Assembly (NCBI GenBank): GCA_963971535.1 | Contig: OZ020589.1 | Location: 67,991,239 to 68,055,238 of the forward strand | DNA length: 64,000 nucleotides | Direction: 5' to 3' | Source: Notolepis coatsorum | Lineage: Eukaryota; Chordata; Actinopteri; Aulopiformes; Paralepididae | In this document: positions 21,265-64,000 of the stretch, piece by piece | Numbering within the stretch: position 1 is the stretch's first letter | Layout of the letters: every line of letters begins with the position of its first letter | Made by a program: the position numbers and the translations under genes | Notes under the pieces: model-generated | What the model saw: only the letters and a program-made list of their open reading frames with translations | Databases searched by the model: none | What the model was told of the DNA's origin: nothing

Positions 21265-21940
21265 ATGAATGAATGAATGAAAACTTTATTTAACAGATTG
21301 CAGAATGGGTACAATACAGTACGGCTCAATACATACAATTGTTAAAGGGATGCAGACCTGAGAAAGACGTTTGTCTTGTTTCCATCAGGGTCCCCCATTT
21401 TCAATTCATATAGACATTTATGACATACACAACATACATGACATTTATGGCATATCGACATATAGGTATTTAGTACTGATACATTTGTGACATAAACGGT
21501 ATTCAAATATACAGTACTGTTACCCCTAGCTTTGGGTAGGGCGTTCCACATTGTTGTGGCATAATTGCGAAACGTGTTTAGTCCCTTGTTTGAGCCGAAT
21601 CTGGGTTTAACATGATTTGTTGAGCTTCCTCTGGTGTAGTGGTTGTGGTATTCACTGACCTTTGGGAAGTATTTTGACATTTACATGGGTACCCCGGTCG
21701 TATAGTGTATCTTGTAGACCAGGCCCATTGCAAGTTGCTGTACTCTGTCGTCTACTCTAAGCCATCCTAGGTTGTCAAAGTGGGCAGGGGTGAGGTGGGT
21801 TCTGGGGTTCAGGTCAAGTAGTAGTCTGACCAGTTTGTTTTGTGATGTTTGTAATTTTGTTTTAAGCGCCTTTGAGGTGCTTTGGTACCATGAGGTGCAC
21901 GCATAGTCGTAGTACCCTTGAATTATAATGGTTATAACCC
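21265..21940 (-). pseudogene. LINE ORF2 C-terminal remnant
   Basis: Minus-strand translation gives YDYACTSWYQSTSKALKTKL, RVDDRVQQLAMGLVYKIH, then a stop, then VSEYHNHYTRGSSTNH and FRNYATTMWNALPKARG. This order (Y-x-Y-A, W-Y-x-S, then a T-R-G/S and W-N-x-L-P tail) is typical of the C-terminus of CR1/Rex-like LINE ORF2 proteins. The fragment lacks all catalytic motifs and carries at least one stop near 21680. A (TGAA)n tract at 21267-21285 lies at its 3' end. Confidence 0.65.
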
Positions 21941-21944
21941 AGAT

Positions 21945-22130
21945 AGCAAAAGGTGTTAATTCAATGTTGATTTATGGTCAAAATGCTTGATTTTTGGTTA
22001 AGGTCGACGATTGATGGTGAATCACCCATTAACCGCTGAGGCAATTGACTAATGTTGAAAACACGTCATTGAATCAATATTGTTTTGTGGTTGAATTTTA
22101 ATGATTGAAATGCCAAGATCTAATAAATGT
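21945..22130. repeat. Probable DNA-transposon-derived repeat
   Basis: Text such as CAGATAGCAAAAGGTGTTAA, TTCAATGTTGATTTATGG and GTTGAATTTTAATGATTGAA has the look of a dispersed fish repeat I have seen before. I could not find its ends. Confidence 0.35.
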
Positions 22131-23602
22131 TGAATCAACGTATGCTGCTCAACATATGCTGTCGTCATTGTCTCATCACCCAGACTGCACTGCACTTGTG
22201 CCCCGCCTCCCAGAATGCACCTGTGCGGCAGCTTCCTGGCTGCTACCTCATGTCTCTCTGCATCGTTAAGACTGGTGAGTACTGCATGGCAATAATGTCG
22301 ATTATGTTGTATGTTGTATGTTGTATGTATGCTTTCGATTGCAAACGCCAGCGGAGTAGTGCCGTGTTCGTTTTTACATGGTAGAGAATATTATATTAAC
22401 AGTTATTCATGCCTGCTAGCTGAAGCTAATTTAGCTAGTAACGTTAGCTGTTAGCTAGAATGAATGTTTCTTGATCTTGGTGTTATAGTGATATCCACCT
22501 GTTCACATGCATATACTGTTATACATTTTATGTAGGCTAACGTCAGTAACGTTTCAAAATGTGGCTTATGATGTATTCTTTAACAGGATACACTGGCACA
22601 ATCAGTTAGCTTAGCATTGCTGCTACCTTGCTTGCTAAAAAGTCATGGTAAACCAACAACATGGCAGGGTGCAGGCATACAGGCCGGGCCTGTCTCTCTC
22701 CCTCCCTCCCTTATTCTACATGCTTTTGTGACATGTTTGTGATGTTAATACTTGAATACGTTTGATATTAAAAACGCAAATTTTATGCAACACTCGGATG
22801 GAACAGGTTAACCTGCTGGTTGTGTGTCCCATTCACAGCTCAGTAAAAGAGAAGTGCTCCATGATCCATCTCGACTCCCGTGTCCGTTATTCACACAGGA
22901 CAGAAACACAGTGGTCACATTTGCTTCACTGATTCTAAAAAAAAAATTCTTTTCTTTAATAGGTTGAAGCTTCATCATCCTTACACAGCTTGCACAGGGA
23001 GAGATCTTATGTCCCATATGTGATGAACGGAAGTAAGCTCAACACTGCAGTGATGAGTGAAATTATTGGTTCTGTGTTTCAGGTTCATGGTAGAGGGGTC
23101 TACAGTCAAATTGTGAACTTATCATTTAACAGCATCATAATTTTTTTTGTTTGCTGTTTAGTGTTAGTCTCATTGTATTTAAAGAAGGCTAGACGCCGCA
23201 GAGAGGGAAGATGACACACTGGAGTGGCAGGAGAGTCCAGGCTGATGAGAGGTCCCTATGTGTACGGGTGGCAAAACAGCGCCAGTGTCCTCTCCATTCA
23301 CACTCCATTGGGAGCAATTAGGGGTTACAGGGGCACTGCCATGCTAGACTAACTTAGGTTATTTTGATTGAATGTTTAAATTATGTATAGATTTTGTAAA
23401 ATATGATTTCCCCCAATAGTATTGAGTTAACCTATGATTCCTTCCTATCCCTAGGTGTGTGAGGTGGGGCCCAGCAGACATACCGGACGGGGAGACAGAG
23501 GAAGCCTTGGGGGGCTTTGAAAAGGGATCTGCGGAACATCTACTCAGGCATGCAATCTACTTTACTTTTGGTGAATTGACACATGAATAAACATCCCACA
23601 TT
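22131..23602. other. No recognisable gene
   Basis: Short open frames only, none with a domain I know. Some stretches (TTAGCTAGTAACGTTAGCTG near 22430-22450) are of a type common in fish intergenic DNA. Splice-like sites occur, for example near 23457, but I could not link them to exons. Confidence 0.4.
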
Positions 23603-23690
23603 AAAGGGGAACTATCTTATAAATGGCCTTTTTGAGTGTTTAGCATTGTTTCCTAGCTATGTGAACTTATATTAATATGATCTCATCCTA
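23603..23690 (+). repeat. MITE fragment related to the LINE 3' UTR
   Basis: AAAGGGGAACTATCTTATAA and TATTAATATGATCTCATCC match 13893-13970 in order. Only the left half is evident. Confidence 0.55.
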
Positions 23691-26298: not shown

Positions 26299-26300
26299 AT

Positions 26301-26317: not shown

Positions 26318-26366
26318 GGGTAACTAGCGTAATATTAATATAGTGGTATTAATATTGACATGGCCT

Positions 26367-43559: not shown

Positions 43560-44110
43560 ATAGTATGAGAAGATAGAAATATAGATAGAAATAGAAATAC
43601 TTTAATCATGCCGATGGAAATTTTGCACTACAAATCGCTCACAGTAAACATTTAGGTAAAACAATTAGTCACGAATAGGAATAAAAAATAAGCCTAAGAA
43701 TAAAGAATAAAATAAGCCTAAGAATAAAATAATAATAATATACGGTCCGGGATTTACATTTCCTATGTTATGTATATACATTCTAATATAAAATATACAG
43801 TAAAAATATACCGAAATCTACAGTAAGTGCACAGTAAGTGTAATATTGAACAATGTTGTTTTAAAAGTAAAAGTCCAGGAAGATGGTAACTGTCACCCTG
43901 TGCTCAGTGATGCAGTGAGGGACAGTGATGCAGTGAGGCACAGTGATGCAGTGAGGCTCAGTGATGCAGTGAGGCTCAGTGATGCAGTGAGGCACAGTGA
44001 TGCAGTGAGGCACAATGATGCAGTGAGGCACAGTGATGCAGTGAGGCACAGTGATGCATTGTAAAGTCTGATGGCTGTCGGAATGAAAGACTTCCTGCAG
44101 CTTCACATTC
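43560..44110. repeat. Teleost repeat with an 18-bp minisatellite
   Basis: CAGTGATGCAGTGAGGCA is tandemly repeated at about 43905-44055 (18-bp period, about 8 copies). Text on both sides (GATGGAAATTTTGCACTAC; TCTGATGGCTGTCGGAATGA and CTTCCTGCAGC) fits a dispersed fish repeat. Long frames here are products of the 18-bp period, not genes. Confidence 0.7.
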
Positions 44111-45574: not shown

Positions 45575-45738
45575 GAGCGCTATGCAATGCGCTGAACTAG
45601 AAAGCGTAACGTTATTATGTTTCGCGTCACTGTACACCAGATTCACTCGTGTATAAACAAAGCCCATACAGTTATGAAATGGGCTGAACTAGAAAGCGTA
45701 ACGTTATTATGTTTCGCGTCACTGTACATCACTTCAGC

Positions 45739-45772
<34 letters not shown>

Positions 45773-46345
45773 CCGTTGTACTACCAGATTCACTAGTGTA
45801 TAAACAAAGCCCATACAGTTATGAAATGCGCTGAACTAGAAAGCGTAACATTATTATGTTTCGCGTCACTGTACATCACTTCAGCTCCAGCAGCAGCAGC
45901 AGCAGCACCGTTGTACTACCAGATTCACTAGTGTATAAACAAAGCCCATACAGTTATGAAATGCGCTGAACTAGAAAGCGTAACATTATTATGTTTCGCG
46001 TCACTGTACATCACTTCAGCTCCAGCAGCAGCAGCAGCAGCACCGTTGTACTACCAGATTCACTAGTGTATAAACAAAGCCCATACAGTTATGAAATGCG
46101 CTGAACTAGAAAGCGTAACATTATTATGTTTCGCGTCACTGTACATCACTTCAGCAGCAGCAGCACCGTTGTACTACCAGATTCACTAGTGTATAAACAA
46201 AGCCCATACAGTTATGAAATGCGCTGAACTAGAAAGCGTAACATTATTATGTTTTTCGCGTCACTGTACATCACTTCAGCTCCAGCAGCAGCAGCACCGT
46301 TGTACTACCAGATTCACTCGTGTATAAACAAAGCCCATACAGTTA
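45575..46345 (+). repeat. ~122-146-bp tandem array with internal (CAG)n
   Basis: Six copies of a unit containing CCAGATTCACTAGTGTATAA, GCTGAACTAGAAAGCGTAAC and a CAG/GCA run. CCAGATTCAC starts at 45637, 45783, 45919, 46053, 46177 and 46308. The CAG tract shortens from about ten repeats to three along the array, which explains the period change. Confidence 0.92.
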
Positions 46346-46347
46346 TG

Positions 46348-46490: not shown

Positions 46491-47927
46491 AGCTCTGTCA
46501 TTGAAGTGGGTGGTGGCACTAACAGTAGCGATTTTTATTGTTTTGTCATGACCAAACATAATCCCAACATAGATAGGAGGTGTACTGTATGTCAAATGTC
46601 GGTCATGTGGGCATGGTGGAAGAGTTTAGTACAGTCACACAACAGAACACCAGTGGCATTAACCAACAAGGGCGCTCCTCTCAAGAGTACCTGGGGGAGC
46701 CTCATGCGCATGCGCGTCTGCCGCGTCTCGCCGCGTCTCTCGAGTCTCTCTTGCCGCGAAGGGCGTGTGCTAGTGGATTGATTGATTGGCTGTGTGGCCA
46801 ATCAGAGAAACGCTGAACGAAAAGCTGAACACAAGTTGGTTGCCTTTAATATTCACGCAGCCTGTTCATCCCTGTCTCTCTCCTCCACAACCTGGCTTGA
46901 CTAGACATAAGGAGAGAGATGATTACAATTAACTGGTACATTCAGGTCCAGAATTGTTGGAATCCCCTGACAAAGATGTGCAAAAAGCTGTACAATTTAA
47001 ACAATACCATACTGGTAATGAGAAAATAGTTGTTTATTCAATGAATGCATGGAGCAGTTACATCTTATTTCATTTGATACTAACTACTCAGTTCATACAG
47101 ATTTCAAGTATTCAAATATCAATGATGAATATTGCATAAGGTTTACACAGTTAATAGATCACCTTCTTGTTTTATATTCATCTTATATGGCAATTAAATC
47201 AATGGTGTGTTTGTTTGGGGAGTTTGACCTATGTGCCTACCACGTGAAGGTGCATGATCAATGGACAGCACAAAAACAATTTGTGTAGGTGGAGACTAGA
47301 GCTACCACAGATAGTAATAAGTTATTAAGAGTAAGTAATCCATACCATATATATCCTAATAGTTACCTTATTACCATACTTGGCTGAAAACAAACTTTGC
47401 TGCCTGTTGTGAATGTGTTTTTCCCTGTAGGCTAATACATAAGTAGGCATACATTTTTGCAGTTGAGGAAAAATTTGCAGTTGAGTAGGCTATAATGTGC
47501 TGTGTTTTTATGTCTTCCATCGAGGATCACCTTGGAAATAAGTGTTAATGCTTGTTAATGAATGCTTTTAGGTGATATCCTCAGGAATACAAATTGGTCA
47601 AGATCATTTGTTTTTATGATGTGTTTTTAATTTCCAAATAAATCTAATCAAATAAAAAAGCAGTTTTTGCAGTTGAGCTACTGGTGTTGTATATTATACA
47701 GCCTTTTCATGCATCTTTATCAAGGGAACCCTTATCCTAATGATTTAAAAAATAATATTATGATGATACGATATGGACCTAGTAGTTGGGTCATCTGTGG
47801 CACTTCGTTTCTCAATGGATTTTTTAAAAAGGCGGGGGAAATTTGTGAGAGACCAAAATCCAAAATGGCTGCCGTGGAAATTAACTTTTTAATGGTTTGA
47901 CCTACAATGATGCCCAATACATGGTAC

Positions 47928-48665
47928 CAGCCCCCTCTCAGTCATGTACCAGCCCCTCTCAGTCATGTACCAGCCAGCCCCTCTCAGTCATGTACCAGCC
48001 CTCTCTCAGTCATGTATACCAGCCCCCTCTGTCATCTACCAGCCCCCTCTCAGTCATGTACCACAGCCCCATCTGAGTCATGTACCAGCCCCCTCTCAGT
48101 CATGTACCAGCCCCCTCTCAGTCATGTACCAGCCCCCTCTCAGTCATGTACCAGCCCCCTCTCAGTCATGTACCAGCCTCCTCTCAGTCATGTACCACAG
48201 CCCCATCTCAGTCATGTACCATAGCCCCATCTCAGTCATGTACCACAGCCCCCTCTCAGTCATGTATACCAGCCCCCCTCTCAGTCATGTATACCAGCCC
48301 CCTCTCAGTCATGTACCAGCCCTCTCTCAGTCATGTACCAGCCAGCCCCCTCTCAGTCATGTACCAGCCAGCCCCCTCTCAGTCATGTACCAGCCCTCTC
48401 TCAGTCATGTACCACAGCCCCCTCTCAGTCATATACCACAGCCCCCTCTCAGTCATGTACCACAGCCCCCTCTCAGTCATGTACCAGCCCCTCTCAGTCA
48501 TGTACCAGCCCCTCTCAGTCATGTACCAGCCCCCTCTCAGTCATGTACCACAGCCCCCTCTCAGTCATGTACCAGCCCCATCTCAGTCATGTACCAGCCC
48601 CCCTCTCAGTCATGTACCAGCCCCATCTCAGTCATGTACCAGCCCCCCTCTCAGTCATATACCTG
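47928..48665 (+). repeat. 22-bp minisatellite
   Basis: Some 33 units of CAGTCATGTACCAGCCCCCT (plus CT), with 21- to 25-bp variants. The long proline/glutamine/serine-rich frames through it are produced by the repeat. Confidence 0.95.
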
Positions 48666-50704: not shown

Positions 50705-50914
50705 GTGTCTGTGATTTGGATCTTGTCCTATATTATCTTTTCTGTTGTTGCCAGCTTACTTGATTGTATTGCATTTCAAACTATGCATGCTATGAGAAAA
50801 GTTATAGAAGACAGAGTATCTGTTTTAGGTTTGAATGTTCAACCTATGTCTGTGCCTGTGTCTGTGCGTGCGCGCGCGCGCTGTGCGCGTGCGTGTGTGT
50901 GTGTGTGTCTTCAG

Positions 50915-51013
50915 GGTTATGAGTACCGTGTAACCCCTGGCAAATGCTGCGGGACCTGCGTCCAGACAAGTTGTGTCGTCTTGCTACCAGGAAACCTCAC
51001 TCACACGGTCAAG
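50915..51013 (+). CDS. Exon 5 of 5 seen of the mucin/VWF-type protein
   Basis: 99 bp, 33 codons, phase 0 at both ends, after a TG-rich tract and TCTTCAG, before GTTTGT. It encodes GYEYRVTPGKCCGTCVQTSC and VVLLPGNLTHTVK. The P-G-K-C-C-G-x-C-V-Q-T-x-C text is highly characteristic of mucin/VWF VWC modules. The next mucin exon would be expected downstream in phase 0; I found none before the window end, so the gene either continues beyond 64 kb or has lost its 3' end. Confidence 0.8.
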
Positions 51014-51852
51014 GTTTGTGTGTGCATACTGAGGACCCCCCCTAGGCACCTAAAACACATGGAAATCACATGACATAAATCTGTTTCTATCATTTATTTG
51101 GTCACTACCGCCATGGTAGTGACCAAAGAAGTACAGTATGCCATGTACCACTGTAACATCAGTGGCATGGTGTAAAGTGGATTATACCATGGTGTAATAT
51201 CTATGGTTCACAGAGTCGACATTATGTTTATTCTATTCAGTGAGTTGGTAATGTTTAGTTCCAACCTACAGAGGGCGCTCTATGTTTTACTCCTCAAGAG
51301 CAAGACTTTATTTTTTTTTCCAGGGAGAAGTTTTGTTGTGCTAGTTTTAGCCATGACAGCAGTGTCTCAAAATTCTCATATTGGCGCATTCTTCCAATTC
51401 TCCTCTCACAATATTCACCCTCACTGAACTGAGTCGTTTGAAAATGTGCCTATATGTGATGTCATATAGTCACTGCTGCATGTTAATGTGGCTCCTCAGG
51501 CACCTGCACCGCACCCCAGTCCACATTAGCTCAAAACGGCTCGTGATCTTGAGGTAGAAAAATGCTGTTTTTGAGGACTTGATTAGAAATACAAAACAAT
51601 GAATAAAAAAAATATATATATTACAGAGGTGTTCCATAGACTCACAGGAATTGTGTAAAAGTGCCCAAATAGTGAAAGAAATAGTAAAATAGTTCCCCTT
51701 TAAGCAAAAAGGCCACCTTAATATTCAGAATGAGTAATGATGAGATAGCATGAAATTAAAGGTTTGCCACTCAATTTCCCAGAGGTGGCAACATCAAATT
51801 TAATTGTTGTTACTTGGGTACTCATTACATGTATTTGTATGTCTGTACACAG
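51014..51852 (+). other. Intergenic or intron sequence with a MITE fragment
   Basis: No exon is recognised. The MITE right half is at 51626-51704 (GGTGTTCCATAGACTCACAG ... ATAGTTCCCCTTT). Confidence 0.5.
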
Positions 51853-52210
51853 AGGAAGGGATGGGTGGGGCAGAGAGCAGAACTTCTGATGGAGAGGACC
51901 TACGTCATCCTGCAGCGGTACTTGAACAAAATGCCTGCACCAATGATGGTGGAGCTCAAAGAGGAATGGCCTTTTCTCTTCGCTCAGACGGGGCTTTTCT
52001 CCCACTTTGGCCTCCTGACAGACACCGATGCCCTTCAAAAGATCCAAGATGCCCTGGGTCAGAGAGGACGGACCATCCTGCAGTTCTGCCAGAAACTGGA
52101 CAACCCGGAGATCAGGGAAGTTCTGGCCAGATATGATCCAGAGGCTTCGAAGAAGACTCCTTATGGTGTACTTCAAGGAGCCTACGGAGAAACTGCTGCT
52201 CGGAGTTGAT
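51853..52210 (+). pseudogene. SAMD3-like exon, frameshifted
   Basis: After an acceptor (TGTACACAG) the frame reads RKGWVGQRAELLMERTYVIL, then LKEEWPFLFAQTGLFSHFGL, RGRTILQFCQKLD and YDPEASKK. This resembles the C-terminal half of the large fish family of SAM-domain-containing protein 3-like proteins (the W-P-x-L-F and h-L-x-F-h pattern). Near 52145-52165 the conserved continuation (VYFKEPTEKLLLGVD) appears only in the next frame, so an indel breaks the exon. A donor-like GTACGT starts at 52211. The SAM domain itself is not seen. Function unknown; a different uncharacterised family is possible. Confidence 0.5.
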
Positions 52211-52261
52211 GTACGTTTTATGTATTTAAATATTAAAATATTTGAAATGCTAAATGATTAC

Positions 52262-53731
52262 AAACCCTACAAACACTGTGATAGACCCTCTAAACACTGT
52301 GATAGACCCGACAAACACTGTAAACACTGTGATAGATCTATCACAGTGTTTAGAGGGTCTATCACAGTGTTTAGAGGGTCTATCACAGTATTTAGAGGGT
52401 CTATCAGTGTTTAGAGGGTCTATCACAGTGTTTGTAGGGTCTATCACAGTGTTTGTAGGGTCTATTACAGTGTTTAGAGGGTCTATCACACCCTCTAAAC
52501 ACTGATAGACCCTCTAAACACTGGGACAGACCCTCTAAACACTGTGACAGACCCTCTAAACACTGATAGACCCTCTAAACACTATGATAGACCCTCTAAA
52601 CACTGTGACAGACCCTCTAAACACTGTGACAGACCCTCTAAACACTGTGACAGACCCTCTAAACACTGTGATAGACCCGACAAACACTGTGATAGACCCT
52701 CTAAACACTGTGATAGATCTATCAGTGTTTGTCGGGTTTATCACAGTGTTTAGAGGGTCTATCACAGTGTGTGTAGGGTCTATCACAGTCTTTAGAGGGT
52801 CTATCAGTGTTTAGAGGGTATGTCACAGTGTTTAGAGGGTCTATCACAGTGTTTATAGGGTCTATCAGTGTTTAGAGGGTCTATCACAGTGTTTAGAGGG
52901 TCTATCACACCCTCTAAACACTGATAGACCCTCTAAACACTGTGACAGACCCTCTAAACACTGTATCAGACCCTCTAAAACTGTGACAGACCCTCTAAAC
53001 ACTGTGATAGACCCTCTAAACACTGTGATAGACCCTCTAAACACTGATAGACCCTCTAAACACTGTGACAGACCCTCTAAACACTGTAACAGACCCTCTA
53101 AACACTGTGACAGACCCTCTAAACACTTTGATAGACCACACAAACACTGTGATAGACCCTCTAAACACTGTGATAGATCTATCACAGTGTTTGTCGGGTC
53201 TATCACAGTGTTTAGAGGGTCTATCAGTGTTTAGAGGGTCTATCACAGTGTTTAGAGGGTCTATCACAGTGTTTGTAGGGTCTATCACAGTGTTTAGAGG
53301 GTCTATCAGTGTTTAGAGGGTATGTCACAGTGTTTAGAGGGTCTATCACAGTGTTTATAGGGTCTATCAGTGTTTAGAGGGTATGTCACAGTGTTTAGAG
53401 GGTCTATCACAGTGTTTATAGGGTCTATCAGTGTTTAGAGGGTCTATCACAGTGTTTAGAGGGTCTATCACAGTGTTTGTAGGGTCTATCACAGTGTTTG
53501 TAGGGTCTATCACAGTGTTTAGAGGGTCTATTACAGTGTTTAGAGGGTCTATCACACCCTCTAAACACTGATAGATCTATCAGTGTTTAGAGGTGTCACA
53601 GTGTTTGTCGGGTCTGTCACAGTGTTTAGAGGGTCTGTCACAGTGTTTAGAGGGTCTGTCACAGTGTTTAGAGGGTCTAGCAGTGTTTAGAGGGTGTGAT
53701 AGACCCTCTAAACACTGTGATAGATCTAGAA
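52262..53731. repeat. Orientation-switching 21-bp minisatellite
   Basis: The unit begins ACACTGTGATAGACCCTC (21 bp). It runs forward at 52262-52336, reverse to about 52490, forward to 52717, reverse to about 52909, forward to 53177, reverse to about 53556, forward to 53576, reverse to about 53703, then forward to 53731. Every forward-to-reverse switch is the palindrome GATAGATCTATC (52331, 52712, 53172, 53570). Reverse-to-forward switches centre on AGAGGGTCTATCACACCCTC. Because 21 is divisible by 3, the many open frames here mean nothing. Confidence 0.95.
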
Positions 53732-54079
53732 GTGCATGGATACACATTGTATTGCCTAGCCCTAGATGGTGTCAGGCTAGGCGATTGCTTCTCTTTCCTG
53801 TCCAGTCTAACTGGATGCTGACTGTAGCTTGTTACTGTAGACCTACAGAGTGAGTAATTGAGTGATTAAAAAAAATCGCACTTGTGTGAAGTGAGGGGTG
53901 CTCTTATCATCGTACATCATCTCACCTCTCTTCCTCACTTTTTTATTTTTGTGTCTATCAGCTGCTGCTCGACAGTTTGACCCCAAGCTGACTGACCAGG
54001 ACTACAGCTAAACTGTCAAGAAGTGGCTTCGTTATGCGCCAGACCGGGAGGGAGGCATCTCAAGGAACCGAACTTAAGT
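53732..54079 (+). other. Unassigned, possible last exon
   Basis: An acceptor-like site (TTGTGTCTATCAG) at 53961 precedes a short frame ending at 54011. I could not join it to the broken exon at 51853-52210 in a consistent phase. Confidence 0.25.
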
Positions 54080-54385
54080 CAAGCGAACCAGAGTCAAACT
54101 TAGGGTACCCCAGCACAGCACACACTGTTTCCCTGGTACAAGGAATTACCCTCATGGACACTGTTCTTCCATGGACGGCATCTACTTGAATGACTTGCTG
54201 CTTCAGCCTGTTCTTGGAACCGAAGTGACCCAAACTCAATTGTCAAGCGAACCAGAGTCAAACTTGGGGTACCCCAGCACACTGTTTCCCTGGTTCATAC
54301 AGTACAAGGAATTACCCTCATGGACACTGTTCTTCCATGGACGGCATCTACTTGAATGACTTGCTGCTTCAGCCTGTTCTTGCAG
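54080..54385 (+). repeat. Tandem duplication, ~165-bp period
   Basis: Two copies (54080-54215 and 54244-54380) begin CAAGCGAACCAGAGTCAAAC and share CATGGACGGCATCTACTTGA and GCTTCAGCCTGTTCTTG, with small indels near the middle. Confidence 0.92.
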
Positions 54386-54512
54386 TGTTTATTTTGTTTA
54401 TTTTGTATTTTAACCTTTATTTACGCAGGGTAGGTTCGCTGAGCACGGATGCTCTTTTTCAGCTACGCCCTGCTTCACATTCACAGAGTTCCATTCACAC
54501 CTGGGAGCTGCC
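54386..54512 (+). repeat. Common teleost repeat, left part
   Basis: TTTTAACCTTTATTTACGCA through ACACCTGGGAGCTGCCCA belongs to a family I recognise from many fish. It continues at 54859-54879 (CCAGTACAACCACAGTCTGAC) and, after the BEL insertion, at 63233-63340 (CACTGTTGGCCACTGAGCAA ... TGCCTTGCTCAAGGGCAC). Confidence 0.75.
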
Positions 54513-54858
54513 CAGGCCTAACAAAATTAATAGTTGGTTTCAGGTTGCCGACCGACCCTGCCGATGTAGGTGCGACCCAATATATTTTATGAGTTTTTAG
54601 AAAAAAATTATAAAAAAAAAAGAAAATAATTTTTAATAAAGTTTCATAGAAATCTTAGTCAAACATTTAGTATTATGGATATTAAACATGCTGGCAGAGT
54701 ACATGCATCCATGTTGTTGTGAACATTTTAATTAAATAAAGAAATCCCCTATCCATAGTCGCCGTGGGAAAGAATAAAAAAAAATAAAAAATAATTCCCT
54801 ACCTACCCATGGCCAAACTGACAACCAACCTGAAACCAACTATTAATTTTGTTAGGCC
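54513..54858. mobile_element. 346-bp MITE with 23-bp or longer terminal inverted repeats
   Basis: GGCCTAACAAAATTAATAGT at the left pairs with the right end (ACTATTAATTTTGTTAGGCC). The arms extend about 34 bp, to the GGTTTCAGGTTG segment. CCA flanks both sides and matches a 3-bp duplication in the host repeat (GAGCTGCCCA|GTACAAC). Confidence 0.8.
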
Positions 54859-54879
54859 CCAGTACAACCACAGTCTGAC

Positions 54880-56314
54880 TGTAACTGAGGGGTACAATTC
54901 CCTGACTGTATTACTAGATATGATACTTACTACCACTACCTTTGTACTTAATATTCGGCCACCCAGTACACGGCACAAATATATTATCATGAACACTCTC
55001 ACGTAGATGAAACGGATCCAACACAAATGTACGAATTAGAAACAAGTCTTTATTGCCTACACAGCGATGGTGTGTAGACTAAACACTTAATCACTTAATT
55101 ACATTTATGAATTGAAATAGTATGCACTTTTATGGCAAGGAGTATTCGTCGGTATATCAATAGATAATGTCCAATCTCTGAAGGCGCAGGTGGTAAATAT
55201 ACGACCTGGAATAGTTAAGGAATAACAGCAATGATACTTTAATGATTATAGGCTGGATACACTAGAGGGGGTTAATCCGGTCGATTGTAAGCCGACAGGA
55301 GTAGGAGGGGGGGGGGGGTAGAATCCAGCTGCCTCGTCCGGCCAAGGGTATCCCAGGAGAACACACTGTAGTGCCGTTCAATGCGCCGGCGATCCTTGGA
55401 CCACAGATGACAGCAGGTGGACTCTTTGTGGGCCGGCTCTCTCCGGTCCACGGGGGAGAGATGTGGAGAGACCTCGTCTTGCAGAGCGTCTCCTCACCTT
55501 GCGACCTCTCCAGGGGGGGGGGGGTTCCAACACACGGTAGTGTCGGGGGTCTTTATCCATAGAATAATCAAAGTATCCAAAGCATAATCCGTGCCTGGGA
55601 AGGCGGGCTGTCGTCGGTAGAATAATCCGGTATACAGGTCCACTCGCTCGTCGGCTCTGGGGCTCCTCGGGTGCAGCTTCACATAGGGTCAACCACCCTG
55701 GGTAAACAGCCAGTTCTCTGCCCGAAACGATGGGGTACTGACTACGGTAGTATTCTCACCGCACGAAGCACTATATATTAACAGACTATTATTAGCTTAA
55801 TAGACTACGTCCAACTCGACGATATAGTGCCAAATATGACTATTCAAATATTAATATACACGATGTCTCAATACCGATGGTAGGCGAACTTGGCCTTACT
55901 CCCACACGTGGCATCGCGGGGAGGCTTTACGTCTGTGACTCTATTGGAGGGTAAGAAACTGGACTGAAAAGAAAGTCCTACTTTAGTAGCGCAGTATATA
56001 TACGCACTATGAACAAATAGTCCCATTAGTGGTGCGGTAGCCAAATTCCTACGCGGAACTAGGACTTGTTCGTACATGTCGAGCGGTACGTTTGAACTGG
56101 GTCTGAGGGGTATGGCAGCCTGGCACCAAGGTCTCGACCAATAGTAGAATGGAGACTATTATGGGATGTTCAGTAGGCTAGAATGGATATTCAATGCATA
56201 TTGTACAAGGAATATACAAGGGATATCAGGGAATATTAGAGAATATACAAATACAATTAAATATATATATATAAATAAATATATATATTCGGTTTAATCT
56301 GGCCCTTCACAACA
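54880..56314 (-). repeat. 3' LTR of the third BEL/Pao
   Basis: TGTAACTGAGG at the low end and TTCACAACA at the high end. It includes a minus-strand AATAAA near 55050. Confidence 0.93.
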
Positions 56315-56423
56315 GCCACCCCCTGAATAGGTCCCAGACCTAATCAGTTAAACGGAGACAGATTAATCGCGTTGTCTATTTACACATAAGGGTTTGCTGT
56401 AGGGGTCAGTCAACTTCACAAAG

Positions 56424-59400
56424 TCATAGGGTTGTAGGGTCATGGTCATCATCGATTGTGTCTGGGAGTCGAGGCAGTTCTATGAGCCTTGCCACGGGAC
56501 GGGTGTAAGTGCGACCCTGGACGAGCACTTCAGCTGCTCGGACCTTGCCGTCGGCACCGGTGATCACTTTGCTTACGCGGCCGGCCGGCCACATAGCTCT
56601 GGGCAGTGATTGATCAATAATCATGACGACTGTTCCTTCTGTCAAATTGTCTCTCTCCTTTACCCACTTCTGGCGGGTCTGTAGAGACGGTAGGTAGTGC
56701 AGTAGGAAACTGTTCCAAAACTTGTCGGCTAATACTTGGCTGTACCTCCACATTCGTCGGCCGTTCGCTTCTTCAGGCCGGTACATTGTCTGGGGTAATG
56801 TGGGATCTAGCCGCCCCATCAGGAGTGTGTTGGGGTCTCTGCGTAGGCGACCACCCACTCTGATGAGGGTATGAGCGTCGCTCTCGGGGGCCAGGTGAAT
56901 TAATCTGCTGTCGGATGGGACGGGCTTTCCTCCCTGTAGACAGGCCAATTCATCGGGGACCGAGTCTCTCTGGGCTCGCTGCAGTAGAAGCAATTCTGCT
57001 TCCTCGTAGTTAGCCGCTGACATATCAGCGGGGGACTTGCACTCCGGGTGGTACCGCAGGAATGTTCTTTGTTGTGCACTCTCTATGGACGTGCAATCGT
57101 TTATGTTAGGGTCGGTGGAGGCTACGGTGCTCAATCCACAGAACACAGACTTCTTAATTTCCACCTCCTCTGGACTTGCTTCCCTCGGGATAGGCTTGGG
57201 CCACTGTCCTTCCGGGAGTCTTAGGAATGCGGGGCCGTCACTGTAGACATTGCGACGGGTGAGGTCATCCAGGGGCATCCCCCGGGTGATGACGTCAGCT
57301 GGGTTCTGTTTTGTATCAACGTAGCGCCACTCTGTTTCTCCGGTTAACTCTTCGGTTAAGTCTTGAATCTCGGTGACTCTGACTCCCACGAAGACTTTGT
57401 ACTTGCATGAGTCCGATTTGATCCAGGCGAGTACCGTCGTGGAATCTGACCACAGGATTGTTCTAGACACCGGTATGGTGAGCTCACGTTGGATGAGCGT
57501 GGCTAGGTGCGCTCCGGCTAGGGCTGCGCAGAGCTCTAGACGTGGGATAGACTGTTGCTTGCGTGGGGCTACTCTCGAGCGGCCGAGGACAAATGCTGTG
57601 TAGATCTCTCCCCCTTGGTCTTGGGCCCGCAAGTAGGCTACTGATCCGTATGCGACCTCTGAGGCGTCACTGAAGACGTGTAAGTCCATTTTACATGTCT
57701 CTGGCCTCACCGTGGGTGGGAAGTAGCTTCGGCGCATATTAACGCCTGGGAGTGAGTGGAGCTCCATCTCCCACTCTCTCCAGGTGGATGCAAGGTGTGC
57801 GGGAATGGGGTCGTCCCAGCCCTGGTCCTTGTCCCACAATGCTCGTACAATCATTTTTGCCCTGGTGGTGTACGGTAGAATACATCCTAGCGGGTCATAT
57901 TGTCGGGCGAGTGTTGTGTACACACTCCGTCTGGTGGTCGGCGCCGCCGCCGGCCTTCCCTGCTCCGTAGTCAGGGGCTTGTGTCTGTAGTGAAGCGAAT
58001 CTGTTTTGAATCGCCACACCAATCCCAGGGTCATCTCCTGGGCTTCTCCCGGGATTGTAGCCATCCAGGTCTCGCTGCTGGCTGCCTTGTCCTCGGAGGA
58101 GAGGCTGCGCAGTACTTGCGGATCGCTGCTGGCCCACTGCCTGAGATCAAAGCCGCCTTTGATCAATGAGGCGCGGAGTTTAATCAGGAGAGCCTCGGCT
58201 TCTTCCTGGGTTGAAAGGCTTTGTAGACAGTTGTCTACGTAGAAGCTGTTCTTTACGCTGTGTCGGACCTCTTCGTCCGCTGCTGGGTCCTCTGCTACAT
58301 GTTTCTGTAGTGCAAATGTCGCACAGCAGGGGCTGCACGTCGTTCCGAAGGGGAGGACTTCCCATTGGTAGATGGCTGGGTGCTCATCTCCTGGCTTCTC
58401 TCTCCATAGGAACCGTAACAGGGGCTTGTCCGCCTCTACTAATCTCACCTGCAGGAACATTCCTTTAATGTCCCCGCTGATGGCCACCTTTTCCTGGCGG
58501 AAGCGGAGTAGAACGCCGAGTAGGGAGGGGCCGAGTGTGGGACCGGGCAGTAACTCTTTATTCAGATTTTGGGATCCGATCTGGTAGCTGCAGTTAAATA
58601 CTATGCGGTCTTTACCGTTGTGATGGACCTTGTGGTGGGGCACGTACCACGATTCAGTGGTCTGGTCAGCCTCTTTAATGTCCATCTTTGTGACGTGTCC
58701 CGCTGTGATGAGCTTCTCAATCTCAGCGCGGTATACACTCTCTTGGGCGGGGTTCTTGGCTAAGCGCCGCTCCGTGTTCAGCAGGTACCGTTCTATGGCG
58801 TCTGTCTTGGCGTGGAAAGTAGGCATTCCTTCTCGCCGCAGGAGTGGCGTGGCGTATCTCAACACGCCGTTGACCGGGACTCTCTTGGTCCCTGTCTCGA
58901 GGAGGTGAATGGCGTAAATGTCATCTTTAGAGCGAATGTCTTTCTTTCCATTCTTAAAGGGCATTTGTTCCAAGCTCCATAGCCGCTCTACGTGTTGCAG
59001 GAGTGCGGTTTCTCCCTCTGTGACTCGGGAGTGGAGACATCTAGTGGCTGTACTTCGGTTGAGAGATTTGGCGAGCGGGCCTTGGAGAGTCCATCCCAAA
59101 CGGGTCTCGACTGCTGCAGGACAGCCTCGGGGTCCGGTATGAACCCGGTCTATCGGGACAATGAGGTCTGCATGGTCGGAGCCTATCAACAGGGTCGGCA
59201 TAGCATTGTCTATGAGCGGGATCGGTAACTTGCGCAGATGTGCATATTTCTCCATCAGCTTGGCGACGGGGTATGTGTACCGCGACAGTCCTATTTCTTG
59301 GCTGGTGAAAGCGTCTGCAATCTGGTACCGTCGCTCAGGCTGGCCGCTTGCTGCGATAGAGAATGAGACATTCTCGCCCTTTATCGTCTTCAAATCTCGT

Positions 59401-61487
59401 CTTATTGTCCGAATTGTCATTTGGGTTTCGCTTCCCCGCAGCCCTAGCTGGGCCGCAGCGGAGGCGAGCAGCAGGGTCTTCTCTGACCCGTCATCGAGGA
59501 CGGCGTAAGTGTCCAGGACTTTATTCTGGTAGCTTAGTGTCACATGCACTACTTTTAGGAGTACTCGGGCTCCACTGCTGCTGGCGGGATCGATGTACAT
59601 GACGCTCGCTTTGCGGCTGGATGGTGCAGGTGAAGGGCGCCGTCTGTTACTGTCGTGAAGTATGTCCAGATGGGCTCCATCGCACTTGGTGCACCTTTTC
59701 TTTAAGCGGCATTCGGCTGCCATGTGTGAGCGCGCACAGCGAAAACAGCGCTTGTTGGACTTTATCCATTGACCTGCTTCCTCCGCGTTCAGCTTGGGGA
59801 AGGAGTCACATTGCGCTAGCCAGTGTTCTTTCTCACAGTAGGGGCACACTATCTTCCACTTCTCCGTTCTGGAGGGGGTACTGTGGCTCCTGCTGCTCGG
59901 TACTGACTCCGATTGGTGCATCACAGTCACCGATCTTCTTCCATCATTTAGTCGTCTGGTTCCTTCTCTGGAGCCAGGGGTGCTCCGTCCGAATGTATCT
60001 AGCCGTAGGCTGCTGACTTCTCTCGCCAGGAAGTCCGCTAGATCGAGGAGGTTCGGTTCGGGGCCAGTCGGGTCTCTGTGGTCCCTCTGCCGCCTAAAGC
60101 GCTCCTGACGAGCGGGCGGCAGCTTCTCCAGAATCCTTTCCACATTTGAGTTGGCGTAAAGTTCATACTTCCCCTTCTCTCTTTGCGCTCCCAACATCCC
60201 TACCAGGGACTGCACTCTGATGGACAGGTCGTCCAGTGCTCGATTGTCTATTGCTGGGGGTAAGCGGTCGATGTGTCGGATCTCCTGGATCACGTAATCC
60301 CATATGCGCCCATACCTCTGGTCCAATGCTACCAGCGCTGCTGTGTATGGGGTGGTGGAAGTCGCGTAGGCGAGCGCTATATTATGTGCGCGGGGCACCT
60401 TTAAGTGCTGCAGTAGGATGGCGTATTTGTGGCGTTCATCCAATACATCCACCAACATGGTCTCCAGACACATGCGGAGTTCTGTATACTGGGCCCGGTT
60501 CTCTTGGGTGAAGTCGGGTACCATAGGCGTGCCAATGTATGACGCTGACTGTGGATACATCGGCGAGCGTTGGGGGAGAGGCCTCCTAGGCGAGTCTCCT
60601 CCCGCTCCTTGGTATGGGCTGGTACCGGCAGTGTACCATGGCCCGCTTGTCCAGGTGCTGTTCCTCGGTGCGGGTCGTGCGTCGTGCTCACCCGTGTATA
60701 GAGTCGGGGGTCTGTAGCGCAGCTCCGCGGGAGTATAGCCTGGGTTGTACCGGTCCGGTAGAGTACTGTGCTGTGTTCGGGCGCGGTTCTCCTCCTCTTC
60801 CTCTTCGTCTTCAGTTAGGTCATCCAGTGCTTGTAGTCTCTGGTTTAGCCTCTCCACAGGATATGCTGCTCCTTCCCAGTTGCTAGGTCTCGCTTGGACC
60901 GGTGGGGGGAGGTGGTCTGTGGGGGGTATAGACCTCGTCTGTTGGTCAAGTTCAGGGTTGTTTACTCGGCTAGGGGATGCCGCCCTGGAGGTGTGTCTAG
61001 ACGAGTTCCTGGAGCCTCTGGCGGAGGGAGAGGGTGTTGTCCGTCTGATCAGCTGTTCTATTAGTTGCGCTTGCTGTCTGTCGCGCTCTGCGTCCCGTAG
61101 AGCACCAGCAGCTGCTCGCTGGCTGTCTGCTCGGTCTCGGGCCACATTCTCTTCCATCTGAATGCGTCTTATTTCCAGGCGTATGTGCTCTTCTTCGCTC
61201 CGTTGCTGTATCTGCAATCGATCGCGTTCACCCTGGAGTCTATCGCGTTCAGTAGAGGCTTTCAGGCTGACGAGGAATGCCTGCTGTAGGGTCCTCTCTG
61301 CCTCGCTGGGAGAAGGCGGTTGTATAGGGGAGCCTTCCCTCGGGGTACTCCTTGCGGAGCCTTGGAGCTCTATCTCCACGGTGCTCTCCCCGTCTTCTTC
61401 CGTGCCGAGTTCTCTCTCGGTAGCGTTGTATTCCTCCCGGGACTCATCGGGGACTACTTCTTCAGTACTGGCGGGGTGTGAAGTCAT
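56424..61487 (-). CDS. Third BEL/Pao Gag-Pol, integrase zinc finger and core missing
   Basis: The open frame of 1687 residues starts at ATG 61487 (MTSHPAST). The true gag start lies further upstream (ATG 61729, MMNTPRNDPP) but is separated by a 1-nt loss near 61508. Order: charged leader with two adjacent ERDRLQ units, gag core, zinc motifs CPYCEKEHWLAQC and CFRCARSHMAAEC, protease VLDDGSEKT, RT with VLPFGTTCSPCCA and the YVDN box (58231-58245), and RNase H HVFSDASEVAYG. At about 56834 GGRLRRD jumps directly to PNTLLMGRLD. Compared with the inner copy (35545-36336), 264 codons are missing, holding the integrase zinc finger and all three acidic residues. The C-terminal module (AMWPAGRVSKV) follows in frame. 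The protein should lack integration activity. Confidence 0.92.
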   Translation of the reverse strand: MTSHPASTEEVVPDESREEYNATERELGTEEDGESTVEIELQGSARSTPREGSPIQPPSPSEAERTLQQAFLVSLKASTERDRLQGERDRLQIQQRSEEEHIRLEIRRIQMEENVARDRADSQRAAAGALRDAERDRQQAQLIEQLIRRTTPSPSARGSRNSSRHTSRAASPSRVNNPELDQQTRSIPPTDHLPPPVQARPSNWEGAAYPVERLNQRLQALDDLTEDEEEEEENRARTQHSTLPDRYNPGYTPAELRYRPPTLYTGEHDARPAPRNSTWTSGPWYTAGTSPYQGAGGDSPRRPLPQRSPMYPQSASYIGTPMVPDFTQENRAQYTELRMCLETMLVDVLDERHKYAILLQHLKVPRAHNIALAYATSTTPYTAALVALDQRYGRIWDYVIQEIRHIDRLPPAIDNRALDDLSIRVQSLVGMLGAQREKGKYELYANSNVERILEKLPPARQERFRRQRDHRDPTGPEPNLLDLADFLAREVSSLRLDTFGRSTPGSREGTRRLNDGRRSVTVMHQSESVPSSRSHSTPSRTEKWKIVCPYCEKEHWLAQCDSFPKLNAEEAGQWIKSNKRCFRCARSHMAAECRLKKRCTKCDGAHLDILHDSNRRRPSPAPSSRKASVMYIDPASSSGARVLLKVVHVTLSYQNKVLDTYAVLDDGSEKTLLLASAAAQLGLRGSETQMTIRTIRRDLKTIKGENVSFSIAASGQPERRYQIADAFTSQEIGLSRYTYPVAKLMEKYAHLRKLPIPLIDNAMPTLLIGSDHADLIVPIDRVHTGPRGCPAAVETRLGWTLQGPLAKSLNRSTATRCLHSRVTEGETALLQHVERLWSLEQMPFKNGKKDIRSKDDIYAIHLLETGTKRVPVNGVLRYATPLLRREGMPTFHAKTDAIERYLLNTERRLAKNPAQESVYRAEIEKLITAGHVTKMDIKEADQTTESWYVPHHKVHHNGKDRIVFNCSYQIGSQNLNKELLPGPTLGPSLLGVLLRFRQEKVAISGDIKGMFLQVRLVEADKPLLRFLWREKPGDEHPAIYQWEVLPFGTTCSPCCATFALQKHVAEDPAADEEVRHSVKNSFYVDNCLQSLSTQEEAEALLIKLRASLIKGGFDLRQWASSDPQVLRSLSSEDKAASSETWMATIPGEAQEMTLGLVWRFKTDSLHYRHKPLTTEQGRPAAAPTTRRSVYTTLARQYDPLGCILPYTTRAKMIVRALWDKDQGWDDPIPAHLASTWREWEMELHSLPGVNMRRSYFPPTVRPETCKMDLHVFSDASEVAYGSVAYLRAQDQGGEIYTAFVLGRSRVAPRKQQSIPRLELCAALAGAHLATLIQRELTIPVSRTILWSDSTTVLAWIKSDSCKYKVFVGVRVTEIQDLTEELTGETEWRYVDTKQNPADVITRGMPLDDLTRRNVYSDGPAFLRLPEGQWPKPIPREASPEEVEIKKSVFCGLSTVASTDPNINDCTSIESAQQRTFLRYHPECKSPADMSAANYEEAELLLLQRAQRDSVPDELACLQGGKPVPSDSRLIHLAPESDAHTLIRVGGRLRRDPNTLLMGRLDPTLPQTMYRPEEANGRRMWRYSQVLADKFWNSFLLHYLPSLQTRQKWVKERDNLTEGTVVMIIDQSLPRAMWPAGRVSKVITGADGKVRAAEVLVQGRTYTRPVARLIELPRLPDTIDDDHDPTTL

Positions 61488-61778
61488 GTCTGGTTCCCAC
61501 TGGTCCCCACGTGAACTTGGTCAGTTACATTAGAGCCCGTAGGGGCCTCTATGGTCGGGGTAGTCTGGGCGTTGGGGTTAGACATACTTTTACTTTCTAG
61601 TTTTACCGCGTTTACTGTTAGTAGAAGACTAGGTTGTTGACTGACAGCGTAAGCCTCTAAGTACTGAGGGAGCCGTCGTTCGCGCTGCGGGCGTTGGTTA
61701 GGAGGATCGTTTCGTGGAGTGTTCATCATAGGCCATTTCAATATTAATAACACTATATTAATATTACACTAATTACCC

Positions 61779-61795
61779 TCCGGCTCGAAGGACCA
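61779..61795 (-). promoter_or_regulatory. Primer binding site matching tRNA-Tyr
   Basis: Minus-strand TGGTCCTTCGAGCCGGA, identical to the outer BEL PBS, 2 nt from the LTR. Confidence 0.85.
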
Positions 61796-61797
61796 AT

Positions 61798-63232
61798 TGT
61801 AACTGAGGGGTACAATTCTCTGACTGTATTACTAGATATGATACTTACTACCACTACCTTTGTACTTAATATTCGGCCACCCAGTACACGGCATAAATAT
61901 ATTATCATGAACACTCTCACGTAGATGAAACGGATCCAACACAAATGTACGAATTAGAAACAAGTCTTTATTGCCTACACAGCGATGGTGTGTAGACTAA
62001 ACACTTAATCACTTAATTACATTTATGAATTGAAATAGTATGCACTTTTATGGCAAGGAGTATTCGTCGGTATATCAATAGATAATGTCCAATCTCTGAA
62101 GGCGCAGGTGGTAAATATACGACCTGGAATAGTTAAGGAATAACAGCAATGATACTTTAATGATTATAGGCTGGATACACTAGAGGGGGTTAATCCGGTC
62201 GATTGTAAGCCGACAGGAGTAGGAGGGGGGGGGGGGTAGAATCCAGCTGCCTCGTCCGGCCAAGGGTATCCCAGGAGAACACACTGTAGTGCCGTTCAAT
62301 GCGCCGGCGATCCTTGGACCACAGATGACAGCAGGTGGACTCTTTGTGGGCCGGCTCTCTCCGGTCCACGGGGGAGAGATGTGGAGAGACCTCGTCTTGC
62401 AGAGCGTCTCCTCACCTTGCGACCTCTCCAGGGGGGGGGGGGTTCCAACACACGGTAGTGTCGGGGGTCTTTATCCATAGAATAATCAAAGTATCCAAAG
62501 CATAATCCGTGCCTGGGAAGGCGGGCTGTCGTCGGTAGAATAATCCGGTATACAGGTCCACTCGCTCGTCGGCTCTGGGGCTCCTCGGGTGCAGCTTCAC
62601 ATAGGGTCAACCACCCTGGGTAAACAGCCAGTTCTCTGCCCGAAACGATGGGGTACTGACTACGGTAGTATTCTCACCGCACGAAGCACTATATATTAAC
62701 AGACTATTATTAGCTTAATAGACTACGTCCAACTCGACGATATAGTGCCAAATATGACTATTCAAATATTAATATACACGATGTCTCAATACCGATGGTA
62801 GGCGAACTTGGCCTTACTCCCACACGTGGCATCGCGGGGAGGCTTTACGTCTGTGACTCTATTGGAGGGTAAGAAACTGGACTGAAAAGAAAGTCCTACT
62901 TTAGTAGCGCAGTATATATACGCACTATGAACAAATAGTCCCATTAGTGGTGCGGTAGCCAAATTCCTACGCGGAACTAGGACTTGTTCGTACATGTCGA
63001 GCGGTACGTTTGAACTGGGTCTGAGGGGTATGGCAGCCTGGCACCAAGGTCTCGACCAATAGTAGAATGGAGACTATTATGGGATGTTCAGTAGGCTAGA
63101 ATGGATATTCAATGCATATTGTACAAGGAATATACAAGGGATATCAGGGAATATTAGAGAATATACAAATACAATTAAATATATATATATAAATAAATAT
63201 ATATATTCGGTTTAATCTGGCCCTTCACAACA
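61798..63232 (-). repeat. 5' LTR of the third BEL/Pao
   Basis: 1435 bp and nearly identical to 54880-56314, including the lengths of two 12-base G runs. Flanked on the right by CTGAC. Confidence 0.93.
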
Positions 63233-63340
63233 CTGACACTGTTGGCCACTGAGCAACTCCACTGGAGCAGTTGGGGGTTTAGTGCCTTGCTCAAGGGCAC
63301 TTCAGCGGTTGGTGTTAAGGGTATGGGAGAGAGTTATATG

Positions 63341-64000
63341 GGAGAGAGTTATAGAAACATTAGGGGTGTAACGGTACACAAAATCCACGGTTCGGTACGT
63401 ACCTCGGTTTTGAAGACACGGTTCGGTATTATTTTCGGTACAGTGGGGGGGGGGGGGGGGGGGGGGAATCCAAAAAAAATTGCTTTTCATTTATCTATTT
63501 ATTTAACTGTATTAAACAATATAAAACGAATTGGCCATAATTGACTGAGCAAACTAATGCTTACTGCTGTAACCTACTAATAACACTTAAGTAAATCTGA
63601 AGATTATTATATAGCAGATGCCTTGGAGGATAAGTCGTGGACAACTGTAGATCATCTAAGCTCCACTGTGTTTAAATTCAAATCCTCTGCCATTGTTATT
63701 TAACCCTTGTGTCTGAAAACTAAAGTATTATACTCTTATTAGGGGACTAAATTGAAAAACTCCATAAAAAGATTATGTTGAAATAATTTCCCACTTTCTT
63801 TTCCATAAATATTTTATTCAACTTCAGCCCTCATCATAACCATTTTTTATATTATTTTTGTAATGAAATACTCCCACTTTTCTGAAAAGAGTTGTTAAAT
63901 ATGACAAAAAAAACAATATGTGGTGGTTATGATCGGGCTGAAGTGGAATAAACAATTTATGAAGAGTAAAAAAAAAATAATAATAATTAAAAGATTATGC
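63341..64000. mobile_element. Probable left end of a DNA transposon, runs off the window
   Basis: TAGGGGTGTAACGGTACACA, followed by CGGTTCGGTACGTACCTCGG, is a terminal signature I recognise from common fish DNA transposons, probably hAT. A G-run of about 20 lies near 63447-63467. The remaining AT-rich sequence to 64000 shows nothing I can name, and no right end is in the window. Confidence 0.5.

What the first reader, a model, noticed from the sequence alone, without database searches (positions are those of the whole stretch)
52262..53731. Minisatellite that alternates strand in blocks joined by AGATCT palindromes
A 21-bp unit runs for 1.47 kb in about nine blocks of opposite orientation. 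Forward-to-reverse turns always use the same GATAGATCTATC palindrome and reverse-to-forward turns share another near-palindrome. Ordinary slippage gives only head-to-tail arrays. Repeated use of the same turn points suggests template switching at hairpins, amplification of an inverted dimer, or a foldback-type mobile element. The region should form cruciforms.
Basis: partly seen in the sequence, partly recalled or inferred. Interest (0 to 1): 0.85.

Follow-up and report, generated by a model that had tools for sequence, protein, structure and literature searches.

The report
Transposon-borne strand-alternating minisatellite in fish
A short repeat that keeps flipping strand is not a one-off accident at this spot: it is carried inside a jumping element copied to many places in what is probably a fish genome, and the flips look inherited and re-copied rather than made anew each time.

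Summary
Window 52264-53728 is nine alternating blocks of a 21-bp unit; all four forward-to-reverse turns are GATAGATCTATC. Three of four reverse-to-forward turns have loop CTATCAC; the fourth has its reverse complement. The array is not private to this locus: 36 further stretches from 18 contigs carry it with at least one shared flank. It is a module of a dispersed repeat, 'E' (6.6-8.2 kb in three copies), with ends CCCAGATAGCAAAA...TTTTGCTATCTGGG and 2-bp target duplications in 4 of 4 complete copies. Over 37 loci, 229 of 253 F-to-R and 238 of 252 R-to-F turns are the same two junctions. Blocks resemble same-orientation blocks more than opposite ones (275 to 26, 4 ties). Multi-turn segments are duplicated at 635/635 and 833/836. 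One inversion in an ordinary array can give both turns. So it is an inverted-dimer higher-order repeat, amplified in tandem and spread by a probably non-autonomous DNA transposon. Template switching at every turn is not supported.

The parts
52264..52336 (+). block F1 of the 21-bp unit (conserved array start)
   Evidence: left anchor of the array present in 30 of 37 loci, window included
52337..52489 (-). block R1
52490..52717 (+). block F2 (GACAG-rich)
52718..52908 (-). block R2
52909..53177 (+). block F3 (GACAG-rich)
53178..53555 (-). block R3
53556..53575 (+). block F4 (one 19-mer)
53576..53694 (-). block R4; its variants are those of an F block, i.e. probably an inverted copy
53695..53728 (+). 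block F5 (conserved array end, F34)
   Evidence: array ends in F34 in 23 of 23 loci with both flank anchors, window included
52331..52342 (.). F-to-R turn T1 GATAGATCTATC
52712..52723 (.). F-to-R turn T2
53172..53183 (.). F-to-R turn T3
53570..53581 (.). F-to-R turn T4
52483..52489 (.). R-to-F turn U1, loop CTATCAC
52902..52908 (.). R-to-F turn U2, loop CTATCAC
53549..53555 (.). R-to-F turn U3, loop CTATCAC
53696..53702 (.). R-to-F turn U4, flipped loop GTGATAG
21938..21951 (+). 5' terminal inverted repeat of element E (CCCAGATAGCAAAA)
   Evidence: 40 of 40 scored genome places (983 candidates) match the first 200 bp at 98% or more
21938..23604 (+). element E, first segment (host of the array)
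51700..54879 (+). element E, second segment, containing the array
63233..64000 (+). element E, third segment; E ends 992 bp beyond the window (L049:992)
51853..52206 (+). exon-like stretch of a SAMD3-like gene carried by E, left of the array
   Evidence: P0001, P0002 and P0003 at 68-80% identity
23605..51699 (.). later insertion into this copy of E, TTAA target duplication, ends AGGGGAACTAT/ATAGTTCCCCT (not part of E)
   Evidence: empty site in L028
54880..63232 (-). BEL/Pao-like LTR element inserted in this copy of E (not part of E)
   Evidence: the two LTRs 99.86% identical over 1435 bp; homology to other E copies resumes at 63233

Best explanation
The feature is an internal higher-order repeat of a dispersed, probably non-autonomous DNA transposon-like element E. 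An ordinary head-to-tail 21-bp minisatellite in E suffered one internal inversion, or an equivalent inverted insertion, that created both turns at once: T (AGATCT, no loop) and U (7-nt loop). The resulting F-T-R-U unit was then duplicated and deleted in tandem, so turns multiplied by descent. Some higher-order units were later inverted, for example the conserved right end R4-F5 with its flipped loop. E spread array and flanks together, and copies then diverged in block number. Shown: alternation at many loci, shared flanks, two dominant junctions, variant identity by orientation, near-exact multi-turn duplications, TIRs and 2-bp TSDs. Inferred: the founding single inversion, unequal exchange or replication slippage as the engine, and a transposase supplied in trans.
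For: 37 loci (36 fetched plus the window) alternate and each has at least one E anchor: 30 left, 30 right, 23 both, 0 neither. 229 of 253 F-to-R turns share one junction; 194+44 of 252 R-to-F turns share one junction in its two orientations. At CTATCAC turns (n=194) the ACAG variant makes up 5.4% of R-side and 37.8% of F-side units; at flipped-loop turns (n=44) it is 38.9% and 13.4%, swapped as inversion of a whole unit predicts. Same-orientation blocks closer 275, opposite 26, tie 4. 635/635 and 833/836 duplications spanning several turns. In the window GACAG is 10 of 24 units in F2+F3, 0 of 34 in R1-R3, 3 of 4 scored in R4. Inversion geometry reproduces T, U and flipped U. TSDs AA, CC, TT, TA in 4 of 4 complete copies. 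Joined-flank query: 40 of 40 scored places (1615 candidates) match one side only, so no array-free copy was seen. 10 of 10 copies taken from the left-flank hits that I had not already fetched begin with array units; 8 of 10 show T within about 250 bp.
Against: 24 F-to-R and 14 R-to-F turns are of other types; many look like small changes at T or U, but some (e.g. AGAGGGCCCTCT, six times in L021, L027, L041, L043) could be new turns. The modelled inversion needs a 13-nt loss at one breakpoint and a 1-nt duplication at the other (set up). Unit-order tests in the window alone are mixed: R1/R3 0 of 1000 shuffles, R2/R3 2, F2/F3 51, R1/R2 809; comparisons with R4 were uninformative. F3 and R3, of opposite orientation, share 72 exact bp. 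Opposite blocks are still about 95% alike, and same-orientation blocks are almost as alike between loci (0.974, 0.977) as within (0.978, 0.983), so exchange between arms and older shared ancestry are possible. The CC duplication lies in a run of C. Loci were found with the array as query and are related, so counts are not independent. No transposase profile search was run on E. Predicted 5' ends were not found in 4 copies checked (L050, L052, L054, L067).
Confidence: 0.83

Rival explanations
1. Repeated template switching: polymerase jumps strand again and again at the same hairpins, so each block is a fresh mirror copy of its neighbour.
For: Each turn is a strong single-strand hairpin (z -5.55 to -13.12); a few turns are unusual, some with perfect mirror arms of 23-35 bp.
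Against: Neighbouring mirror blocks are less alike (median 0.947, 114 pairs) than same-orientation blocks in the same locus (0.978 for F, 0.983 for R). 275 versus 26 in the balanced comparison. Two junctions account for 467 of 505 turns. F and R blocks carry different variants.
Confidence: 0.06
2. Foldback-type element: the array itself is the long terminal inverted repeat of a mobile element.
For: Tandem repeats in opposite orientations in a mobile element, as in Tetris (PMC4079207; abstract and one section read).
Against: The array is internal. E ends in separate short TIRs far outside it, array and flanks travel together, a search of about 60 bp on each side of the array found no direct repeat of 7 bp or more (a 2-bp one would not have been seen), and loci hold up to 29 blocks rather than two arms.
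Confidence: 0.03
3. E was spread by segmental duplication or recombination of host DNA, not by transposition; the array is simply part of an amplified gene fragment.
For: E carries SAMD3-like exon sequence. Some copies are local: three left flanks on C1585 spaced about 4.75 kb, two arrays on C1 about 48 kb apart.
Against: Ends at CCCAGATAGC and GCTATCTGGG with unrelated flanks and 2-bp duplications in 4 of 4 complete copies; 3' end sharp in 4 further copies (L023, L051, L053, L055); first 200 bp of E matched at 98% or more in 40 of 40 scored places.
Confidence: 0.08
4. Assembly artefact: collapsed or flipped reads created the alternation.
For: Inverted repeats are hard to assemble; raw reads could not be examined.
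Against: The same architecture, turns and array ends occur in 36 other fetched stretches on 18 contigs.
Confidence: 0.01

Closest known systems
Tribolium madens TmSat1/TmSat2 satellites with macro-dyad symmetries (PMC13081366; passages read)
   Same: Tandem repeats whose subunits or subarrays change orientation, with conserved inversion sites and predicted hairpins; the same paper mentions a T. brevicornis satellite with about 470-bp inverted segments.
   Different: Beetle (peri)centromeric satellites of megabase scale from a basic sequence of about 110 bp; here a 21-bp minisatellite of 1.2-6.1 kb per locus dispersed inside a transposon-like element.
Tetris foldback element of Drosophila virilis (PMC4079207; abstract and section 10 read)
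   Same: Apparently non-autonomous DNA element that carries tandem repeats of variable copy number.
   Different: Tetris repeats (about 220 bp) lie within its long TIRs, TSD 8-10 bp; in E the repeats are internal, the identical TIR stretch is 14 bp, and the TSD is 2 bp.
Helentron-borne satellite-like arrays of the Pacific oyster (PMC7492417; search listing and start of abstract only)
   Same: Tandem arrays dispersed by a non-autonomous mobile element.
   Different: Helentrons lack TIRs of this kind (recalled); strand alternation was not mentioned in what I saw.
Inverted-unit amplification and fold-back template-switch models (PMC10766183, PMC11724301; search listing and start of abstracts only)
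   Same: They offer ways in which inverted segments first arise.
   Different: Here they are needed at most for the founding turn pair and a few unusual turns, not for each turn.

Membership tests
Higher-order-repeat satellite built on an inverted dimer | Basic units organised in a larger unit that itself recurs in tandem | tested here: met
   635/635 (L013) and 833/836 (L041) multi-turn duplications; same-orientation blocks closer 275 to 26
Higher-order-repeat satellite built on an inverted dimer | Constant junctions between opposite subunits | tested here: met
   229 of 253 and 238 of 252 turns
Non-autonomous TIR DNA transposon | Terminal inverted repeats at both ends | tested here: met
   CCCAGATAGCAAAA at both ends of 4 complete copies; 5' end not found where predicted in 4 other copies
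Non-autonomous TIR DNA transposon | Target-site duplication of fixed length | tested here: met
   AA, CC, TT, TA in 4 of 4 complete copies; the CC case is ambiguous in a C run
Non-autonomous TIR DNA transposon | No transposase of its own; mobilised by an autonomous partner with the same ends | tested here: inconclusive
   No ORF over 200 aa in L036, which holds most of copy A; no profile search of E and no search for a partner element was made
Foldback element | Long TIRs containing the tandem repeats | tested here: not met
   Repeats are internal; the TIR is short
Ordinary minisatellite | Head-to-tail units only | tested here: not met
   Nine alternating blocks; three control arrays in the window show no inverted self-match

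The most novel reading that the evidence does not exclude
The strand-alternating array is kept by selection as a working part of the element, for example as a transcribed fold-back (double-stranded RNA) or cruciform-forming module. That would explain why no array-free copy was seen in the places scored, why both array ends are fixed while the middle varies, and why alternation persists in the copies examined.
Probability: 0.1. Interest if true: 0.75.

Novelty: new variant of a known kind. Interest (0 to 1): 0.5.

Why it matters
Inverted-unit satellites are often buried in heterochromatin, where their history is hard to read (general knowledge). Here a similar architecture exists as many dispersed, highly similar copies with shared outer ends. 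Each copy can serve as a replicate of how an alternating repeat grows, shrinks and inverts. That makes the question 'are strand flips made anew or inherited?' directly testable, and here the answer points to inheritance.

Tried and rejected
Template switching per turn, foldback TIR and assembly artefact were considered and rejected for the reasons given. A target duplication directly around the array was sought and not found (only one 6-bp match). Viral contigs held no exact match to a 24-bp unit pattern. Four strings of the array unit and the TIR occur in no paper of the library searched (0 papers). Paper searches on repeats, foldback and SAMD3 gave the beetle satellites and Tetris as nearest; a search on the TIR gave nothing on this element in its 8 listed papers. 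Pfam gave no family for three translated window stretches. The unit-order permutation test within the window was only partly informative and was replaced by the many-locus comparison. In one search the L041 comparison used wrong block numbers (730/836 and 680/859); one search repeats it with the right ones. In one search the perfect-arm figures for usual R-to-F turns are unreliable, because the search centre was set a few bases off; they are not used. The 109 of 114 figure favours the same-orientation side, because it takes the best of several; the balanced one search is used instead. One search printed 22 of 23 arrays ending in F34; one search showed that the exception, L024, also ends in F34 and has a chance 26-base match further on, so 23 of 23. 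L066 was fetched to follow one interrupted array and holds no unit.

Full report
Observation. The array 52264-53728 consists of nine blocks of a 21-bp unit in alternating orientation: F73 R153 F228 R191 F269 R378 F20 R119 F34. The four forward-to-reverse turns (T) are all GATAGATCTATC (0.01 expected in the window). The four reverse-to-forward turns (U) are 15-bp perfect arms around a 7-nt loop, CTATCAC in U1-U3 and its reverse complement GTGATAG in U4. Three other minisatellites in the window have no inverted self-match. Every turn folds well as single-stranded DNA, z -5.55 to -13.12, 0 of 200 shuffles as stable.

What the blocks say within the window. Forward and reverse blocks carry different unit variants. 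GACAG-type units are 10 of 24 in F2+F3, 0 of 34 in R1-R3 and 3 of 4 scored in R4 (two further R4 units, one unscored and one at its end, were left out; Fisher P 4e-5 for F2+F3 and 5e-4 for R4, each against R1-R3, treating units as independent). TAC/TAT heads are 0 of 24 in F2+F3 against 9 of 34 in R1-R3 (P 0.007). R4 therefore looks like an inverted F block, and it lies next to the only flipped U loop. Exact matches mostly point the same way: R2/R3 113 bp, F2/R4 70 bp, R1/R3 61 bp; but F3/R3, of opposite orientation, also share 72 bp. Unit-order tests were mixed: R1/R3 0 of 1000 shuffles, R2/R3 2, F2/F3 51, R1/R2 809; opposite-orientation pairs of F2, F3 with R1-R3 gave 343 to 782, and comparisons with R4 were uninformative.

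The array is not unique to this locus. In the window's own genome (3.42 Gb, 4787 contigs) the array query gave 735 candidate places, 38 scored and 296 matches. From the printed part of that list I fetched 36 further stretches on 18 contigs. All 36 alternate. With the window, the 37 loci have 7 to 29 blocks and 1.2 to 6.1 kb of array each; L016 holds two arrays, and a few block counts include chance matches. The array start and end are shared, and so are the flanks: 30 loci keep the left anchor, 30 the right, 23 both, none neither, window included. All 23 with both anchors end in the same 34-base block. The array is therefore a module inside a larger dispersed repeat, which I call E.

E is transposon-like. 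Comparing the window with two wide copies (A, C13:138.35 Mb; B, C13:107.53 Mb) shows common sequence that starts at CCCAGATAGCAAAA and stops at TTTTTGCTATCTGGG, with unrelated flanks. Copy A is 6.8 kb and copy B 8.2 kb. The window's copy begins at 21938 and ends 992 bp beyond the window. It is split by two later insertions: 23605-51699 (TTAA duplication; L028 has the site empty) and a BEL/Pao-like element at 54880-63232 (LTRs 99.86% identical). Without these it is 6.6 kb. The dinucleotides flanking complete copies are AA (window), CC (A, in a C run), TT (B) and TA (L027): a 2-bp duplication in 4 of 4. The 3' end is also sharp in L023, L051, L053 and L055. The first 200 bp of E match 40 of 40 scored places at 98% or more, of 983 candidates. 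The left flank of the array matches 40 of 40 scored places at 97% or more, of 704 candidates. The family thus looks large and young, but only 40 places per query were scored and the copy number is not known. Not all copies keep the predicted 5' end: L050, L052 and L054 and L067 did not show it where expected. E carries SAMD3-like exon sequence left of the array (three proteins, two from Dissostichus eleginoides and one from D. mawsoni).

Does every copy carry the array? Ten copies taken from the left-flank hits, none of them among the loci already fetched, were read for about 250 bp. All ten begin with array units and eight show the T turn; of the other two, one runs into sequence that by eye matches an LTR of the window and the other into unrelated DNA. 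A query made of the two flanks joined without the array found 40 of 40 scored places matching one side only (39 right, 1 left), none spanning the joint, of 1615 candidates.

Where the turns come from. Over 37 loci (two L016 arrays are identical, 1382/1382) there are 253 F-to-R turns, 229 at the same phase, and 252 R-to-F turns: 194 with loop CTATCAC and 44 with GTGATAG. Many of the remaining 24 and 14 look like small changes at T or U. At the 194 CTATCAC turns the ACAG variant is 5.4% on the R side and 37.8% on the F side. At the 44 flipped turns it is 38.9% and 13.4%, which is what inversion of a whole unit predicts; for the 13 internal flipped turns alone it is 37.5% and 22.5%, a weaker contrast. 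Adjacent mirror blocks are less alike (median 0.947, n=114) than same-orientation blocks of the same locus (0.978 and 0.983); same-orientation blocks of different loci are almost as alike (0.974 and 0.977), so much of the likeness is older than the single locus. In a balanced comparison the best partner has the same orientation 275 times, the opposite 26, tie 4. L013 repeats a three-block segment at 635/635 and L041 a four-block segment at 833/836. These duplications copy turns with their contents. The counts are not independent, because the copies are related and were found with the array as query.

Mechanism. If a segment of a head-to-tail array is inverted with the breakpoints given by the junctions (a 13-nt loss at one side, a 1-nt duplication at the other), both T and U appear at once, and the reverse complement gives the flipped loop. 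One inversion, or one inverted insertion, followed by tandem duplication and deletion of the F-T-R-U unit therefore explains the main features. Spread by E explains the many loci. Unequal exchange or replication slippage as the engine is inferred, not shown. Whether hairpins caused the founding inversion cannot be told.

Comparison. Beetle satellites with macro-dyad symmetry and conserved inversion sites (PMC13081366, passages read) are the nearest architecture. Tetris (PMC4079207, abstract and one section read) is the nearest case of tandem repeats borne by a DNA element, but its repeats are in the TIRs. E's array is internal, made of a 21-bp unit, and alternates many times. I found no report of four strings of this unit and TIR in the library searched. 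I rate it a new variant of a known kind.

Noticed in passing
window 23605-51699: Insertion with TTAA duplication and terminal AGGGGAACTAT/ATAGTTCCCCT, empty in L028. By eye it holds cysteine-rich VWC/mucin-like exon stretches near 43.3, 44.9, 50.1 and 50.9 kb, so a TTAA-type element may have carried part of a host gene; Pfam gave nothing for the one stretch tried (50873-51073).
   Followed up: partly
window 54880-63232 and about 24963-42913: BEL/Pao-like LTR elements (named by eye); the first has LTRs 99.86% identical and by eye a 5-bp duplication CTGAC. The second region looks like one such element nested in another.
   Followed up: partly
L016 and G000:C1585:136474-146239: Three copies of E's left flank at about 4.75 kb spacing; the two arrays fetched are identical (1382/1382). 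It may be a tandem array of whole E sequences or a recent local duplication.
   Followed up: no
L022, L024, L031, L033, L041, L042, L043: A shared insertion of about 325 bp starting CCAGTGGTGCCCAACC inside the first array block marks a subfamily of E; the end resembles hAT elements (recalled).
   Followed up: no
L018, L025, L030: Three copies share the same abrupt right end of the array (..GACAGACCCTC|atgtatgttaattt), apparently an inherited deletion or insertion.
   Followed up: no
window 54078-54382: A 166-bp tandem duplication (1.8 copies) in E just right of the array; matches to it are multiple in other copies.
   Followed up: no
window 43905-44058, 45631-46347, 47924-48663: Three ordinary head-to-tail minisatellites (18, 135 and 22 bp) within 10 kb of the array.
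   Followed up: partly
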